Shown piece by piece: positions 8,632 through 13,436 of a stretch of DNA of 13,462 bases (within the stretch, counting starts at the first letter, position 1; every line of letters begins with the position of its first letter). Below the pieces are notes generated by a model. It had not been told where the DNA came from. It searched no databases and worked only from the letters and a program-made list of their open reading frames with translations. A program made the position numbers and the translations under genes. The stretch spans positions 1 through 13,462 of the forward strand of contig JAEELC010000030.1 in NCBI GenBank assembly GCA_016288675.1, written 5' to 3'. Source of the stretch: Acholeplasmatales bacterium (GTDB lineage: Bacteria; Bacillota_I; Bacilli_A; Acholeplasmatales; Anaeroplasmataceae).

Positions 8632-9966
8632 ATGAGAAAGAATTTGTTAAAATATTTAATAGTTTTTTTATTTTATCTTTTTTTCGTCATGTGCATATAA
8701 TGAACAAAACGATGAAAGCAATCAAAGTACTTTAAATTTTAATTATGAAAAATTTCTTGATTTTAATCTTTTGCCTGATGATACATATGAAGTATCTCAA
8801 GGCAGTAGTAACTGTTTAGCAAAAATCATAATACCAGAAACTCATAATGATAAAAAAGTTACACAAATAAAAGAATCTGGGTTTGAAAATTGTGATAAAC
8901 TTCTTAATATTTCATTTTCAAATACAATTATAAATATAGGTGAAAACGCCTTTAATGGGTGTGAATCATTAATAGATATTATTTTTTCAGACAGTATAAA
9001 AAATATAGGAAATAATGCATTTGCTGGATGCAGCTCATTAAAAAGTTTAACGTTACCAAGCAATATCGCATCAATGCCTGATCTTTATTTAAAATGCTTT
9101 AAAGATTGTAGCATAAAAGAAATAAAGATATTACCTGGTGCAAAAGTAATAGGAGATTCTCTATTTTATGGCTGTAAATCTTTATTTAACGTAGAGATTC
9201 CTAATACTGTTACAACAATAGAAAATCATGCATTTCAATTTTGTAAATCATTATCAGATATTATAATTCCAGATAGTGTTACAACTATTGGAGATTTATC
9301 ATTCTCTTGTTGTTATTCACTATCTAGTGTTATGATTCCAGATAGTGTTAATTCAATAAGTGAAAATACATTTGCTAGTTCGCATTTAAAGACTGCAAAT
9401 CAATAAAAGAAGTAACCATTTTAGACGATGAAACTAGCATATGTGATTATGCGTTCAGTGGATGGACTAATTTAACAAACATAACAATCCCAGAATGGGT
9501 TACAAGTATAGGAAAGAGTGCGTTTTATGAATACTGGAGTTTAAATAGTGTAACAATTCCTTCAAGTGTTAAAACAATTGGTGAGGGTGAATTTTATTCT
9601 TGTCCTTTATGTGAGGTATATAATTTGTCTTCTATTAGTTTATTTGGTACAGGTTGTTATCCATTAATTGAGCATACTTCTATTGATGAAGAATCAATTA
9701 TGGTTCATTATGATAAATTTAAAGGTTATATTGTAAAATATAATGGAAATTCTTCAAAAATTGAATTACCTCAATCTTTTGTATATAACAATGAAATAAT
9801 TAATGTTGATTCAATATTTAGTTATGCATTTGCAAATTGTAAGGATATAACAAATATTTCATTTGTAGGTACAAAAGAAGAATGGAATGCTTTAGACAAA
9901 ATGGATTGGTGGAATGAAGGCTTAAATGTGACTATTCACTGTACTGATTGTGATTTAATAATATAA
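8632..9966 (+). pseudogene. BspA-like leucine-rich-repeat lipoprotein, frameshifted twice
   Basis: The ATG at 8632 (ribosome-binding site GGAGAG, 5 nt upstream) opens a signal peptide MRKNLLKYLIVFLFYLF, but that frame stops at 8698-8700. The adjacent frame continues smoothly as FFSSCAYNEQNDESN, a lipobox with its cysteine. Losing one T from either of two T7 runs (8663-8669, 8678-8684) would restore it. TpLRR/BspA repeats of about 23 residues follow (for example IPDSVTTIGDLSFSCCYSL). A second break falls between 9379 and 9403. After it the repeats resume in another frame (FKDCKSIKEVTILDDETSICDYAF) and run to the stop at 9964-9966. The C-terminal FVGTKEEWNAL segment is typical of BspA-like proteins. 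The reconstructed protein would be about 444 residues, surface-exposed and lipid-anchored. It may be a decayed gene, a phase-variable gene, or carry sequencing errors. Confidence 0.8.
9266..9350 (+). repeat. Direct repeats inside LRR coding region
   Basis: The 16-mer ATTCCAGATAGTGTTA occurs at 9266-9281 and again at 9335-9350, exactly 69 nt (23 codons, one LRR unit) apart. This is residual identity from repeat duplication within the BspA-like gene. Confidence 0.75.
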
Positions 9967-10418: not shown

Positions 10419-11777
10419 ATGTTAACTCAAGATGAAATATTTGAAACTATAGACATGATATCAAAGAAAAATCTTGATATTCGTACAATTACTATGGGTA
10501 TTTCTTTAATTGATTGTATGGATAGTGATATTGATAAATCATGTGAAAAGGTTTATAACAAAATTTATAATAAAGCTAAAAATCTTGTTGCAGTAGGTAA
10601 GAAATTAGAAAAGACTTATGGTATTCCTATTGTAAATAAAAGAGTATCTGTTACACCTATTTCTTTATTAGTAGGTTGTTCTGGAGGAGATCCTGTAAAA
10701 TATGCTAAAACTCTTGATAAAGTTGCAAGTGATATTGGTATTGATTTTATTGGTGGATATAGCGCTTTAGTACAAAAGGGCTTTTCAGCAGGAGATTTAG
10801 AACTTATTAATTCAATTCCACGTGCCTTAGCTTGTACAAATAAGCTTTGTTCAAGCGTCAATGTTGGTACTACAAAAGCTGGTATTAATATGGATGCTGT
10901 AAAGCTTATGGGTCATATTGTAAAAGAATCTGCTGAGCTTACTAAAGATAATAATTGCATAGGTGCTGGTAAACTTGTTGTATTCTGTAATGCCGTAGAA
11001 GATAATCCATTTATGGCAGGAGCCTTCCATGGATTTGGAGAAGAAGATACAATTATTAATGTTGGTGTATCTGGACCTGGTGTTGTTCGTTCTGCAATTC
11101 ATGATGCTCCAAAGGATGCATCCATCTCAGAAATAGCTTCTATTATTAAAAAGACAGCATTTAAGATTACTCGTATGGGTGAACTTATAGGTAGAGAAGC
11201 TTCAAAAGCTTTAGGTGTTAATTTTGGTATTGTTGATTTATCATTAGCACCAACACCTGCTGTTGGAGATTCAGTTGCTGAGGTATTAGAAGAAATTGGT
11301 TTAAAAGAATGTGGAGCTTATGGTACAACAGCTTGTCTTGCAATGCTTAATGATGCTGTAAAAAAAGGCGGAGTTATGGCATGTAATAGAGTAGGTGGTT
11401 TATCAGGTGCATTTATTCCAGTTTCAGAAGATCAAGGTATGATTCGTTCTGTTACTAATGGTACTTTAAAGCTTGAAAAGCTTGAAGCTATGACATGTGT
11501 ATGTTCAGTAGGTCTTGATATGATTGTAATTCCTGGTGATACAAGTGAAAATGTTATTTCAGGTATCATTGCTGATGAAGCTGCAATTGGTATGGTTAAT
11601 ACTAAAACAACTGCAGTTCGTGTAATTCCTGCCATTGGAAAAAAGCCAGGAGAGGTATTAGATTTTGGTGGTTTACTAGGACATGCACCTGTAATTAATA
11701 TTAATCAAACTGAAAACGATGTATTTATTTCACGTGGTGGTCAAATTCCAGCTCCACTACAAGCATTAAAAAATTAG
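10419..11777 (+). CDS. UPF0210/PFL family protein (DUF711)
   Basis: This 452-residue cytoplasmic protein belongs to UPF0210 (DUF711, annotated as PFL family). The fold is related to glycyl-radical-enzyme barrels, but I see no obvious C-terminal glycyl-radical loop of the PFL type, and the biochemical role is unknown. Conserved stretches include the N-terminal [78 protein letters not shown] and the C-terminal [16 protein letters not shown]. Length is typical and the frame is intact. A Shine-Dalgarno-like AGGTGG overlaps the stop of the ACT gene, so the two are probably co-translated. The strict pairing with a UPF0237 ACT protein is a known genomic pattern. Confidence 0.93.
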
Positions 11778-11778
11778 T

Positions 11779-11810
11779 ATAGTAAGGCACTTCTTAGTGC
11801 CTTTACTATT
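11779..11810 (+). terminator. Hairpin after UPF0210 gene, probable terminator
   Basis: ATAGTAAGGCAC (11779-11790) pairs with GTGCCTTTACTAT (11797-11809) with one bulged base and a 6-nt loop. It begins 1 nt after the stop. The + strand T tract is poor, while the - strand side has a run of six T a few bases beyond, so efficiency on the + strand is uncertain. Position strongly suggests a terminator. Confidence 0.55.
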
Positions 11811-11837
11811 GTATTAAATTAGTAAAAATATTATAAT
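11809..11837 (+). promoter_or_regulatory. Sigma-A-type promoter of the THF-riboswitch/folT transcript
   Basis: A -35 element TTGTAT (11809-11814), a 17-base spacer and a perfect -10 element TATAAT (11832-11837) predict transcription starting near 11844. That is about 10 nt before the first aptamer stem, so both aptamers would be in the leader RNA. Confidence 0.78.
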
Positions 11838-11853
11838 CAAAAATGTTTAGAAG

Positions 11854-11929
11854 TAACAAAGGCGTTAAGTGCTGTAAGTAGTAGGATAACTTATAGACGA
11901 ATAGGCAACTAGCGGTCTTGTTATAATCC
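11854..11929 (+). ncRNA. Tetrahydrofolate (THF) riboswitch, aptamer 1
   Basis: This RNA element binds reduced folates and controls folate genes in Bacillota. The closing stem is TAACAA/TTGTTA (11854-11859 with 11918-11923). The conserved core GGCGTTAAGTG (11861-11871) follows. A hairpin stem of 8 bp (11872-11879 with 11889-11896) has GGAT in its loop at 11884-11887. Next is ACGAA, then a 3-bp stem TAG/CTA capped by the GNRA loop GCAA, then GCGGT (11912-11916). ATCC at 11926-11929 can pair with the loop GGAT to form the class's long-range pseudoknot. Core, GNRA hairpin and pseudoknot all fit the THF class as I know it. No terminator follows this copy directly. Confidence 0.87.
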
Positions 11930-11959
11930 CAAAATATAAATAGGCAACGTAAGTTGAAG

Positions 11960-12037
11960 TGTTATTGCGTCAAGTGCTCTAAGGGAAAAAGGAAATCTTA
12001 GGGACGAATAGGAAACTAGCGGTAATAACATAATCCT
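11960..12037 (+). ncRNA. Tetrahydrofolate (THF) riboswitch, aptamer 2
   Basis: This second aptamer has the same architecture as aptamer 1 but different stem sequences. The closing stem is TGTTATT/AATAACA (11960-11966 with 12024-12030). The core GCGTCAAGTG (11967-11976) has one T-to-C change relative to copy 1. An 8-bp stem with two wobbles at its C-G/U-G end and one at the loop end pairs 11977-11984 with 11996-12003. ACGAA follows, then TAG/CTA capped by the GNRA loop GAAA, then GCGGT. AGGA in the loop (11990-11993) can pair with TCCT (12034-12037) as the pseudoknot. Changes on both strands of each stem keep the pairing, which is covariation evidence that both aptamers are real. It is directly upstream of the expression platform. 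Confidence 0.85.
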
Positions 12038-12049
12038 AATTTAATATTT

Positions 12050-12079
12050 AAGGGATCTCTAAATTGGAGGTCTTTTTTT
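12050..12079 (+). terminator. Riboswitch expression platform: terminator that includes the ribosome-binding site
   Basis: AAGGGATCTCT (12050-12060) pairs with GGAGGTCTTT (12066-12075), with one bulged A and several G-U pairs, across a 5-nt loop AAATT. It is followed by T residues to 12079, directly before the ATG at 12080. The Shine-Dalgarno GGAGG (12066-12070) is inside the 3' arm, so folding could both stop transcription and hide the start. ATCCT (12033-12037, the pseudoknot strand of aptamer 2) can alternatively pair with GGGAT (12052-12056), disrupting the hairpin. This predicts OFF when folate is bound. Confidence 0.75.
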
Positions 12080-13258
12080 ATGAAAAAATTTTTATTACAT
12101 TTTAGAAACAGATTTATTTTATATCTAGTATCTATTATCTTTTTCGCCTCAATCCCTTATTTTATTGCCTATTTTAAAGCTCCTAAGGTAAACACATATT
12201 CTTTAAGCTTTGAATCAAGCGAAGTGATTGATAAATCTTATTTTACTGAAGAAGATTTAATGAATGCTAAAAACTATTATATTGCTGAAAGAGAAGAAGA
12301 AATTAAAGAAAAAGGAAGTTCTAAAAAAGTAGATTTTTCCTTACTTAATACATCAAAAGCATATAAAAATATAAAAATTGATTATGTAGATGATCATTAT
12401 GAAATTAGTGGTTCACAAAAAGATTACACTAGTGCTAATATGGCAAAGAAATTATTTACATATATGTTAAATGAAGATTCATTTAATAATGTAAGTAAAA
12501 CTATTGTTAAAAATGATAATATTAATGTTATGAACATATTTTTAATAAGCTTAAGCATATCATTTGTAGTTGTAACAATTGTCTTTATCCTATTATATTT
12601 ATTCTATAAAAAGTTCTATAACTTAGATATCGAATATGATAATCAAATATTATATAGAACACCTTTCTATATTTCATATTGGAAGAATCAATTATATTGG
12701 TTACATGATGTAAAGAAAATGACATTGCTTGCAATGCTATTTTCTCTTGAAATAGCATTAAAGCTAATTCATTTACCAAGTGGATTTTCTAATCTTGGTA
12801 TAGGCTTTTCATATTTAGTTTTTAGTATAATTGGTATGCTATTTGGACCAACAACTAATCTTATTATAGGTTGCTTATCTGATTTTATAGGCTATGCTAT
12901 ATCCCCAAGTCCTTATGGCTTCTTCTTACCATATACATTAAATGCTATGCTTGCAGGATTTATATATGGTATTTGTTTTTACAAAACAAATGTAAGTTAT
13001 ACTAAGTGCTTATTAAGTAGATTATTTGTTAATTTATTTGTAAATGTATTCTTAGGTTCTATATGGTGGGGTATTTTAACTGGCCTTGATTCATCTGGTA
13101 TTAAAGATTATGCGTTATTAATATCATTACCTAAAAATTTAGTATATTTATTACCTCAAAGTATATTACAATTTATAACTTTAAATGCACTTAAAAATCC
13201 ACTTTTAAGCTTAGATTTAATTGATTTAAAGGTTAAGGAATCTTTTAGATTTATTTAG
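12080..13258 (+). CDS. folT: FolT-like ECF transporter S component with extra N-terminal domain
   Basis: This 392-residue membrane protein has two parts. Residues from about 213 form an S component of an energy-coupling factor transporter, which captures folate and passes it through the shared EcfAA'T module. It shows hydrophobic helices with GIGFSYLVFSIIGMLFGP, GCLSDFIGYAISPSPYGFFLPYTLNAMLAGFIYG, broken here as GCLSDFIGYAISP and YGFFLPYTLNAMLAGFIYG, and a late KNLVYLLPQSIL segment, all FolT-like. Family members are usually about 170-200 residues. The extra N-terminus has a membrane helix (about 11-32), an outside-facing charged domain (about 33-150) and a second helix (about 151-178). That topology resembles Wzz-like proteins, but I cannot assign it. 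The THF riboswitches upstream support folate as substrate. GGAGG lies 9 nt before the ATG. Confidence 0.83.
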   Translation: MKKFLLHFRNRFILYLVSIIFFASIPYFIAYFKAPKVNTYSLSFESSEVIDKSYFTEEDLMNAKNYYIAEREEEIKEKGSSKKVDFSLLNTSKAYKNIKIDYVDDHYEISGSQKDYTSANMAKKLFTYMLNEDSFNNVSKTIVKNDNINVMNIFLISLSISFVVVTIVFILLYLFYKKFYNLDIEYDNQILYRTPFYISYWKNQLYWLHDVKKMTLLAMLFSLEIALKLIHLPSGFSNLGIGFSYLVFSIIGMLFGPTTNLIIGCLSDFIGYAISPSPYGFFLPYTLNAMLAGFIYGICFYKTNVSYTKCLLSRLFVNLFVNVFLGSIWWGILTGLDSSGIKDYALLISLPKNLVYLLPQSILQFITLNALKNPLLSLDLIDLKVKESFRFI

Positions 13259-13297: not shown

Positions 13298-13317
13298 AAC
13301 AATTGCTTAATTTCATA

Positions 13318-13399
13318 TCCATAAAGAGAAGGCTAGAGACAAGCTCGATGACCCTTCAGCAACTTGCAAAATGTAAAGTGCTAAAGCTTGAATGATGGA
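13318..13399 (+). ncRNA. SAM riboswitch (S-box, SAM-I type)
   Basis: This aptamer binds S-adenosylmethionine and shuts off methionine/SAM genes. The closing stem P1 is TCCAT/ATGGA (13318-13322 with 13395-13399). P2 is GAAGG/CCTTC (13328-13332 with 13353-13357) with an inner GAG/CTC stem. Conserved S-box pieces are AGAGAAGG, CGATGACCC, CAGCAAC and GTGCTAAA in the right order. P4 looks short or degenerate, so a SAM-I/IV-like variant is possible. It sits between a promoter and a terminator, as expected. Confidence 0.88.
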
Positions 13400-13436
13400 C
13401 AATTCTATAAAAAGTCCATTTATGATGGACTTTTTT
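13395..13436 (+). terminator. SAM riboswitch anti-terminator/terminator
   Basis: The terminator pairs AAAAAGTCCAT (13409-13419) with ATGGACTTTTT (13425-13435), a perfect 11-bp stem with a 5-nt loop and a T run to 13436. GTCCAT (13414-13419) can instead pair with ATGGAC (13395-13400), the 3' strand of aptamer P1, as an anti-terminator. SAM binding locks ATGGA into P1 and so allows termination. Confidence 0.9.

What the first reader, a model, noticed from the sequence alone, without database searches (positions are those of the whole stretch)
11854..12037. Two complete THF riboswitch aptamers in tandem before one expression platform
Both copies have the core GCGTYAAGTG, the stem-loop with GGA, ACGAA, a GNRA-capped hairpin, GCGGT and a 3' pseudoknot strand. 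Stem sequences differ between copies yet stay paired. There is one promoter and one terminator. A THF aptamer of this class is reported to bind two ligands, so a tandem could hold up to four and give a steep or two-input response. I do not know of a well-described tandem THF riboswitch.
Basis: partly seen in the sequence, partly recalled or inferred. Interest (0 to 1): 0.8.

Follow-up and report, generated by a model that had tools for sequence, protein, structure and literature searches.

The report
Two folate-sensing RNA switches in tandem
Ahead of a folate-uptake gene, three related bacteria carry two copies of a folate-sensing RNA switch that share one off-switch hairpin, a doubling that a published survey did not find for this switch class.

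Summary
Window 11844-12043 carries two THF-I (RF01831) aptamers before one terminator-like hairpin that also holds the Shine-Dalgarno, ahead of a folT-family gene. In the window Rfam scores are marginal (36.0 and 31.0 bits, cut-off 36; neither listed at the curated threshold), but both other held genomes of the genus have the same tandem with all four copies above the cut-off. A model built from 19 single-copy relatives finds both window copies (44.4, 40.5 bits); with it, 98 of 160 genomes of the order match and three, all of this genus, match twice. A 2022 survey (PMC9481103) states that pseudo-cooperative THF-I riboswitches are not observed, perhaps because each aptamer already binds two ligands. 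Here 0 of 6 copies has the canonical pseudoknot ligand-site signature, against 37 of 57 single relatives. Copy 1's switching strand can reach the terminator arm by a long-range helix that encloses copy 2; in three leaders 3, 1 and 1 of 100 shuffles do as well. Copy 2's strand can hold the arm locally. Best model: an OFF switch that fires fully only when both aptamers are occupied. Ligand binding and the gate are inferred; an equilibrium fold favours copy 1 alone.

The parts
11784..11804 (+). hairpin AAGGCACU-UCUU-AGUGCCUUU after the upstream DUF711 gene, likely its terminator
   Evidence: read by eye; the scanner reported no terminator-like site in 11700-12150; not tested further
11809..11837 (+). 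candidate promoter: TTGTAT (11809-11814), 17-nt spacer, TATAAT (11832-11837)
   Evidence: by eye; not reported by the scanner (only 3 of 6 bases match TTGACA)
11844..11936 (+). THF-I aptamer copy 1
   Evidence: R1 44.4 bits, E 7.4e-9; Rfam 11846-11934, 31.0 bits
11926..11930 (+). copy 1 switching strand AUCCC: pairs with loop L3 of copy 1 (GGAU) or with the terminator 5' arm GGGAU
11932..11941 (+). 5' part of the linker that can extend the long-range helix with 12039-12043 and 12045-12049
   Evidence: helix energy alone not significant in the window (546 of 2000 shuffles as good); pairing probability reached by 3 of 100 shuffles
11945..11956 (+). small linker hairpin CAAC-GUAA-GUUG between the copies; hairpins of other sequence at the same place in G001 and G002
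11950..12043 (+). THF-I aptamer copy 2
   Evidence: Rfam 36.0 bits, E 2.1e-6; R1 40.5 bits, E 7.8e-8
12033..12037 (+). copy 2 switching strand AUCCU: pairs with its own L3 or, locally, with GGGAU of the terminator arm
12050..12079 (+). expression platform: hairpin 12050-12076 with 5' arm containing GGGAU (12052-12056), 3' arm containing the Shine-Dalgarno GGAGG (12066-12070), and U tract 12073-12079
   Evidence: fold -11.1 kcal/mol; same design in the 42 single-copy relatives examined
12080..13258 (+). folT-family ECF transporter S component, with about 210 extra N-terminal residues
   Evidence: TIGR04518 78.7 bits, cut-off 60; PF07155 and PF12822; PDB 4z7f folate ECF transporter E 8.6e-14

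Best explanation
This is a tandem THF-I riboswitch with one expression platform that turns off a folate importer (FolT) when reduced folate is plentiful. Each aptamer ends in a switching strand (AUCC...) that pairs either with that aptamer's own P3 loop (pseudoknot, ligand-bound form) or with the 5' arm of the hairpin that terminates transcription and hides the Shine-Dalgarno. Copy 1's strand reaches the arm by a long-range helix made with the linker and the spacer, so that copy 2 sits inside the loop of copy 1's antiterminator; copy 2's strand can take over the arm locally. The arm becomes free, and the gene goes off, mainly when both strands are docked in their aptamers, that is when both aptamers are occupied. 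Shown: two aptamers, conservation, gene family, shared platform, complementarity of both strands to the arm, copy 1's contact above shuffles. Inferred: folate binding by each copy, the OFF sign, the order of folding, the both-needed logic, termination versus translation block.
For: Two aptamers in 3 of 3 held genomes of the genus, 95 other genomes of the order with one match each. Between G001 and G002 copies in the same position are more alike (88% and 89%) than the two copies within each (81% and 86%), so the duplication predates that split; FolT of the two is only 51% and 45% identical to the window's while the tandem stays, and DUF711 lies upstream in both. In 42 of the 57 single-copy loci (the 42 examined) the aptamer's 3' strand pairs with the hairpin's 5' arm in 42 of 42 (7-11 pairs, -9.4 to -15.8 kcal/mol), and 40 of 42 have a U-rich tail, so the platform is ancestral. 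In the model of the transcript just before the 3' arm is made: copy 1 free, its strand holds the arm (0.96, 0.94, 0.95 in G000, G001, G002); copy 1 docked and copy 2 free, copy 2's strand holds it (0.75, 0.18, 0.95); both docked, arm unpaired (0.94, 0.33, 0.86). Copy 1's value is reached by 3, 1 and 1 of 100 linker-and-spacer shuffles. The fifth base keeps both contacts by changes on both sides: arm U with AUCC-G (copy 1) and AUCC-A (copy 2) in G001 and G002, arm G with AUCC-C and AUCC-U in the window (by eye); the sixth position pairs in G001 and G002 but not in the window. No DHPS (PF00809) match in 3 of 3 genomes of the genus, while 13 of 14 control genomes match, and an EcfT-like gene in 2 of 3, in line with reliance on uptake; these genomes are only 63-75% complete.
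Against: In the full-length equilibrium model copy 2 hardly matters: in G001 the terminator goes from 0.08 to 0.92 when copy 1 alone is docked and is 0.13 when copy 2 alone is; G002 goes from 0.57 to 0.96 and 0.58; in the window the terminator wins in every state (0.94-1.00). The canonical aptamer helices, when imposed, cost 4-7 kcal/mol against the free fold (pseudoknot and tertiary contacts are not modelled). Copy 2's pairing with the arm is no better than in shuffles (64, 74 and 31 of 100). In the window the long-range helix energy alone is not significant (546 of 2000 full shuffles, 464 of 2000 flank shuffles; G001 3 and 1, G002 1 and 7), and the bare strands are unremarkable there: 25 of 161 leader stretches bind the arm as well as copy 1's and 54 of 161 as well as copy 2's (G001 5 and 5 of 178, G002 6 and 4 of 184). 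In the window both strands bind the arm more weakly (-7.7 and -5.5 kcal/mol) than in any of the 42 single relatives (strand lengths differ). The window's own copies do not group by position: its copy 2 is closest to G001 copy 1 (82%). The canonical pseudoknot ligand site, reported as the one essential for regulation (PMC9881143, passages), is altered in all six copies.
Confidence: 0.5

Rival explanations
1. Copy 1 alone is the switch. It keeps the ancestral-looking AUCCGC strand (in G001 and G002) and the long-range antiterminator; copy 2 is a ligand-insensitive or weakly sensing insert in the antiterminator loop.
For: Equilibrium model: docking copy 1 moves the terminator from 0.08 to 0.92 in G001 and from 0.57 to 0.96 in G002, copy 2 barely. 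Only copy 1's pairing exceeds shuffles. UCCGC is invariant in the 19 singles of alignment A1 and present in copy 1, not copy 2, of G001 and G002.
Against: Copy 2 keeps the aptamer fold and junction residues in all three genomes and has not diverged more than copy 1 between G001 and G002 (89% versus 88%).
Confidence: 0.25
2. Copy 2, which is next to the platform as in the single-copy relatives, is the switch; copy 1 is a leftover of a duplication or only helps folding.
For: Copy 2 has the place of the ancestral aptamer and a strand complementary to the arm; in the window it has the higher Rfam score, and in G001 the higher R1 score (44.7 versus 42.9).
Against: Copy 1 is kept in 3 of 3 genomes with compensatory pairs, scores higher with R1 in G000 and G002 (44.4 versus 40.5, 45.7 versus 42.3), and its contact with the arm is the one above shuffles.
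Confidence: 0.13
3. The aptamers form a divergent THF-I subtype with changed ligand preference or only the junction site working, so the tandem senses a different folate form or binds one ligand per copy. This can hold together with any of the gate models.
For: 0 of 6 tandem copies has the canonical pseudoknot-site signature against 37 of 57 singles; U25 and C53 equivalents kept in 63 of 63. J2/1 is shorter and the GGA in L3 is shifted.
Against: 12 of 57 single relatives lack every part of the signature too and 12 of 12 keep the same platform; one of them (L030) was shown to precede a folT relative. In 5 of 6 copies a U stands third from the end of L3 and might replace U42, and window copy 2 matches the looser loop pattern GGANRU. 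The gene is folT-family.
Confidence: 0.3
4. The tandem is an assembly artefact or chance similarity.
For: Rfam scores in the window are at or below the cut-off and the curated scan lists neither; the genomes are draft assemblies.
Against: Three separate assemblies, diverged sequences, same place, four further copies above the cut-off; independent model E 7.4e-9 and 7.8e-8.
Confidence: 0.01

Closest known systems
THF-I riboswitch (Rfam RF01831), single-copy leaders of the same order
   Same: aptamer fold, junction-site residues, 3' strand that can alternate between aptamer and terminator/Shine-Dalgarno hairpin; folT relative downstream where tested (7 of the 13 single loci put to tblastn; several of the others were too short to hold the gene)
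   Different: two aptamers instead of one; pseudoknot-site signature altered; outer P1 weak or absent; antiterminator of copy 1 spans a whole second aptamer
Tandem glycine riboswitch (two like aptamers, one expression platform; PMC9481103, passages)
   Same: two homologous aptamers for presumably the same ligand, one platform
   Different: different RNA class and ligand; here both strands can compete for one arm and copy 2 is nested in copy 1's antiterminator loop; cooperativity untested
Guanidine-II (dual aptamer, one platform; as I read the flattened Table 1 of PMC9481103)
   Same: dual aptamer and single platform
   Different: small hairpin aptamers (recalled); no relation in sequence or fold
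ZTP/THF-I tandem (A AND NOT B gate; PMC9481103, passages)
   Same: the only tandem with a THF-I aptamer in the passages I saw of that paper
   Different: two ligands of opposite sign, not two THF-I aptamers
Pseudo-cooperative tandem riboswitches (for example TPP; PMC9481103, passages)
   Same: same class twice in one leader
   Different: those are independently functioning riboswitches with multiple platforms; here there is one platform

Membership tests
THF-I riboswitch (RF01831) | covariance-model score at or above the curated cut-off | tested here: inconclusive
   window 36.0 and 31.0 against 36, neither listed at the curated threshold; congeners 4 of 4 copies above
THF-I riboswitch (RF01831) | three-way junction of P2, P3, P4 with conserved core | tested here: met
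   both copies, R1 E 7.4e-9 and 7.8e-8; P3 and core pairs 6 of 6 copies; not the free minimum-energy fold
THF-I riboswitch (RF01831) | long-range pseudoknot between L3 and J2/1 | tested here: met
   complementarity GGAU/AUCC in copy 1 and AGGA/UCCU in copy 2, read by eye; no probing
THF-I riboswitch (RF01831) | junction ligand site (U25, C53 of the S. mutans RNA) | tested here: met
   63 of 63 aptamers, all 6 tandem copies; residues from PMC9881143, placing partly recalled
THF-I riboswitch (RF01831) | pseudoknot ligand site (U7, U35, U42) | tested here: not met
   canonical U7 and U42 signature in 0 of 6 tandem copies, 37 of 57 singles; U35 not tested; a remodelled site is not excluded. It is also missing from some above-cut-off single members, so it does not define the Rfam family
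THF-I riboswitch (RF01831) | folate gene downstream | tested here: met
   TIGR04518 above cut-off
THF-I riboswitch (RF01831) | binds reduced folates | not testable with these tools
   needs in-line probing, SHAPE or calorimetry
Dual-aptamer, single-platform riboswitch | two aptamers of one class with no gene between | tested here: met
   13 nt (R1) or 15 nt (Rfam) between the hits in the window; 27 nt in G001 and G002
Dual-aptamer, single-platform riboswitch | one expression platform | tested here: met
   one hairpin with U tract; linker hairpins carry no U tract (by eye)
Dual-aptamer, single-platform riboswitch | cooperative binding or steeper response | not testable with these tools
   dose response needed
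Pseudo-cooperative tandem riboswitch | each copy has its own platform | tested here: not met
   no terminator-like hairpin after copy 1 (scanner in the window; by eye in the three leaders)

The most novel reading that the evidence does not exclude
The first natural tandem THF-I riboswitch: two aptamers, each with its pseudoknot ligand site remodelled or lost, share one terminator, with copy 2 nested in the loop of copy 1's antiterminator, so that shut-off needs both aptamers filled. Two one-site aptamers would then do the work of one two-site aptamer, which fits the published reason why THF-I tandems should not occur.
Probability: 0.33. Interest if true: 0.78.

Novelty: new variant of a known kind. 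Interest (0 to 1): 0.6.

Why it matters
A systematic survey (PMC9481103) reports that pseudo-cooperative THF-I riboswitches are not observed and suggests that the two ligand sites of each aptamer make them unnecessary. A conserved tandem whose copies lack the canonical second site is a natural exception that can test that explanation. It also offers a case in which two aptamers of one class seem to compete for a single terminator arm, one of them across the other, and a set of natural variants with which the roles of the two THF-I ligand sites can be tested.

Tried and rejected
Chance or artefact: rejected. The pattern requires GCGYYAAGTG twice and CGAA between at set spacings, so it misses variant cores. 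Class pattern search: 2 of 395 genomes, the own one and G317, whose match is a repeated sequence that I judged by eye to be coding; G001 and G002 were not in that draw. Phylum, RF01831: 84 of 392 genomes with a match, one match each. The RF01831 genome searches can miss a second copy: they listed only one in the own genome; the R1 search of the order found both there. Permissive Rfam scans of 40 loci from 40 other genomes found no second THF copy (one of the 40, L036, gave no hit at E 0.01). R1 on 60 sources: 63 matches, two each in window, L003 and L005, one each in the other 57.

Loss of the pseudoknot site as the cause of duplication: not supported as a rule, since single-copy relatives (12 of 57 with no part of the signature, from g3, g5, g8 and one of g2) lack it as well. 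Linker hairpins as terminators: rejected, no U tract. Two ligands of different kind: no evidence. The statement that both copies count equally: not supported by the equilibrium fold. The regular-expression test counts one insertion variant (L052) as lacking GAGUA and one tandem copy (G001 copy 1) as having it although there it overlaps P2. Searches used 48 aptamers, 42 of them single, of the 57 singles; L060, cut by a contig end, was left out.

Papers: PMC9481103, PMC12452182, PMC9881143, PMC6614920, PMC2864571, PMC7357161 and PMC11231146 were seen as passages only; other papers in search listings. Trausch 2011, Trausch and Batey 2014 and Ames 2010 were not held and are known here only through those passages. 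Searches for print on tandem THF riboswitches: (searches listed none); the library holds open-licence papers only.

Full report
What is there. The leader between a DUF711 gene (ends 11777) and a 392-codon gene (12080-13258) holds two copies of the THF-I aptamer, 11844-11936 and 11950-12043, then a hairpin with a U tract (12050-12079) that contains the Shine-Dalgarno. The gene is a folate-family ECF S component: TIGR04518 78.7 bits over a cut-off of 60, and PDB hits to folate ECF transporters, best E 8.6e-14. Rfam's own model is marginal in the window: 36.0 and 31.0 bits against a cut-off of 36, and the curated scan of the whole window lists neither. I read this as divergence, not absence: a model built from 19 single-copy aptamers of other genera finds both copies at E 7.4e-9 and 7.8e-8.

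Conservation. Both other held genomes of the genus carry the tandem at the same locus, downstream of the DUF711 gene and upstream of folT with a SAM riboswitch after it, and all four copies pass Rfam's cut-off. Copies in the same position are more alike between G001 and G002 (88% and 89%) than the two copies within each genome (81% and 86%), so the duplication is older than that split; the window's copies do not group clearly by position (copy 1 with the other copies 1 83% and 76%, copy 2 with the other copies 2 75% and 73%, copy 2 with G001 copy 1 82%). Six copies taken together keep 139 of 156 helix cells as standard pairs, with up to four pair types at one position.

How rare. With R1, 98 of 160 genomes of the order have a match; three have two matches, all in this genus, and 95 have one. 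With RF01831, 84 of 392 genomes drawn from the phylum have a match, one each; this search is less sensitive, since it missed copy 2 in the own genome. A pattern scan over the genome collection found 36 stretches, of which R1 confirmed only the two congeners.

Platform. In 42 of 42 single-copy relatives examined (of 57) the 3' strand of the aptamer can pair with the 5' arm of the terminator and Shine-Dalgarno hairpin by 7 to 11 pairs; 40 of 42 have a U-rich tail. So the ancestral design looks like an OFF switch in which ligand holds the 3' strand in the aptamer and frees the arm. The OFF sign is inferred from this anatomy. In the tandem genus both copies keep such a strand. Copy 1's strand is about 125 nt from the arm and the helix must enclose copy 2, yet the linker after copy 1 and the spacer after copy 2 are complementary and extend it: -12.4 and -13.5 kcal/mol in G001 and G002 (3 and 1 of 2000 full shuffles as good, 1 and 7 of 2000 when only the flanks are shuffled), -8.7 in the window (546 and 464 of 2000, not significant). 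The bare strands are less telling: 25 and 54 of 161 stretches of the window's leader bind the arm as well as the strands of copies 1 and 2 (5 and 5 of 178 in G001, 6 and 4 of 184 in G002).

Logic. For the transcript just before the 3' arm is made, with aptamer core helices imposed, copy 1's strand holds the arm with probability 0.94-0.96 in all three leaders when copy 1 is free, whatever copy 2 does. If copy 1 is docked and copy 2 free, copy 2's strand holds it in two of three (0.75, 0.18, 0.95). With both docked the arm is mostly free in two of three (0.94, 0.33, 0.86). Shuffling linker and spacer reaches the copy 1 value in 3, 1 and 1 of 100 cases and the copy 2 value in 64, 74 and 31: the copy 1 contact looks selected, the copy 2 contact is what its AUCC and the arm's GGAU give anyway. 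In the full-length equilibrium fold copy 1 dominates in G001 and G002, and in the window the terminator always wins. I therefore put the both-needed gate at about even odds and copy 1 alone as the main rival. These folds leave out the pseudoknots and the kinetics, and the imposed helices are 4-7 kcal/mol above the free fold.

Ligand sites. PMC9881143 (passages) gives U7, U35 and U42 for the pseudoknot site, U25 and C53 for the junction site, and reports that the pseudoknot site is the one essential for regulation. Placing these numbers on the alignment rests partly on my recall of the S. mutans sequence. U25 and C53 are kept in 63 of 63 aptamers. The pseudoknot-site signature is complete in 37 of 57 singles and 0 of 6 tandem copies; 12 of 57 singles lack every part of it. 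In the tandem copies GGA is shifted in L3 and J2/1 is shorter, so the site may be remodelled, with a U third from the loop end in 5 of 6 copies as a possible stand-in for U42. All tandem copies are thus of the altered type, but alteration alone does not predict a tandem.

Comparison. The nearest kinds are the tandem glycine riboswitch and other dual-aptamer, single-platform riboswitches. PMC9481103 (passages), which searched RefSeq 80 and environmental sequences with Infernal, says that pseudo-cooperative THF-I riboswitches are not observed and suggests that cooperative binding of two ligands by each aptamer may be the reason; in the passages I saw, THF-I is in tandem only with ZTP. PMC12452182 (passages) finds THF enrichment in Bacillota mainly for single copies. 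I found no report of a THF-I tandem in searches of an open-licence library.

Verdict. Real, conserved, and a new variant of a known kind. The mechanism is well grounded for the shared platform and the long-range strand of copy 1, and open for the gate and the number of ligands.

Noticed in passing
window 13316-13401: SAM-I riboswitch (RF00162, 53.8 bits) at the end of the window, followed by a hairpin with a U tract (by eye); also present after folT in the two congeners and some other relatives.
   Followed up: partly
window 12080-12709: About 210 residues with two hydrophobic stretches (by eye) precede the S-component domain of FolT; homologues in other genera align over much of this part too. 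Pfam and NCBIfam gave no match to it.
   Followed up: partly
L036-L038 (genus g3): Single-copy THF-I aptamers that seem to lack an outer P1 and have an altered L3; Rfam scores only 29-32.6 bits over positions 11-86. Perhaps a P1-less THF-I subtype that curated thresholds miss.
   Followed up: partly
L043, L044 (genus g8): The P3 loop reads AGUGGAUG, almost the same as the terminator 5' arm AGUGGAUC, so loop and arm are near copies competing for one strand.
   Followed up: no
window 8771-9403 and 9625-9966: BspA-type leucine-rich repeat ORF (LRR_5, E 5.4e-47) and a second ORF starting with TTG that looks alike by eye but was not scanned; may be parts of one larger or broken gene.
   Followed up: no
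G000, G001, G002: No dihydropteroate synthase match in 3 of 3 genomes (63-75% complete), in line with folate auxotrophy.
   Followed up: partly
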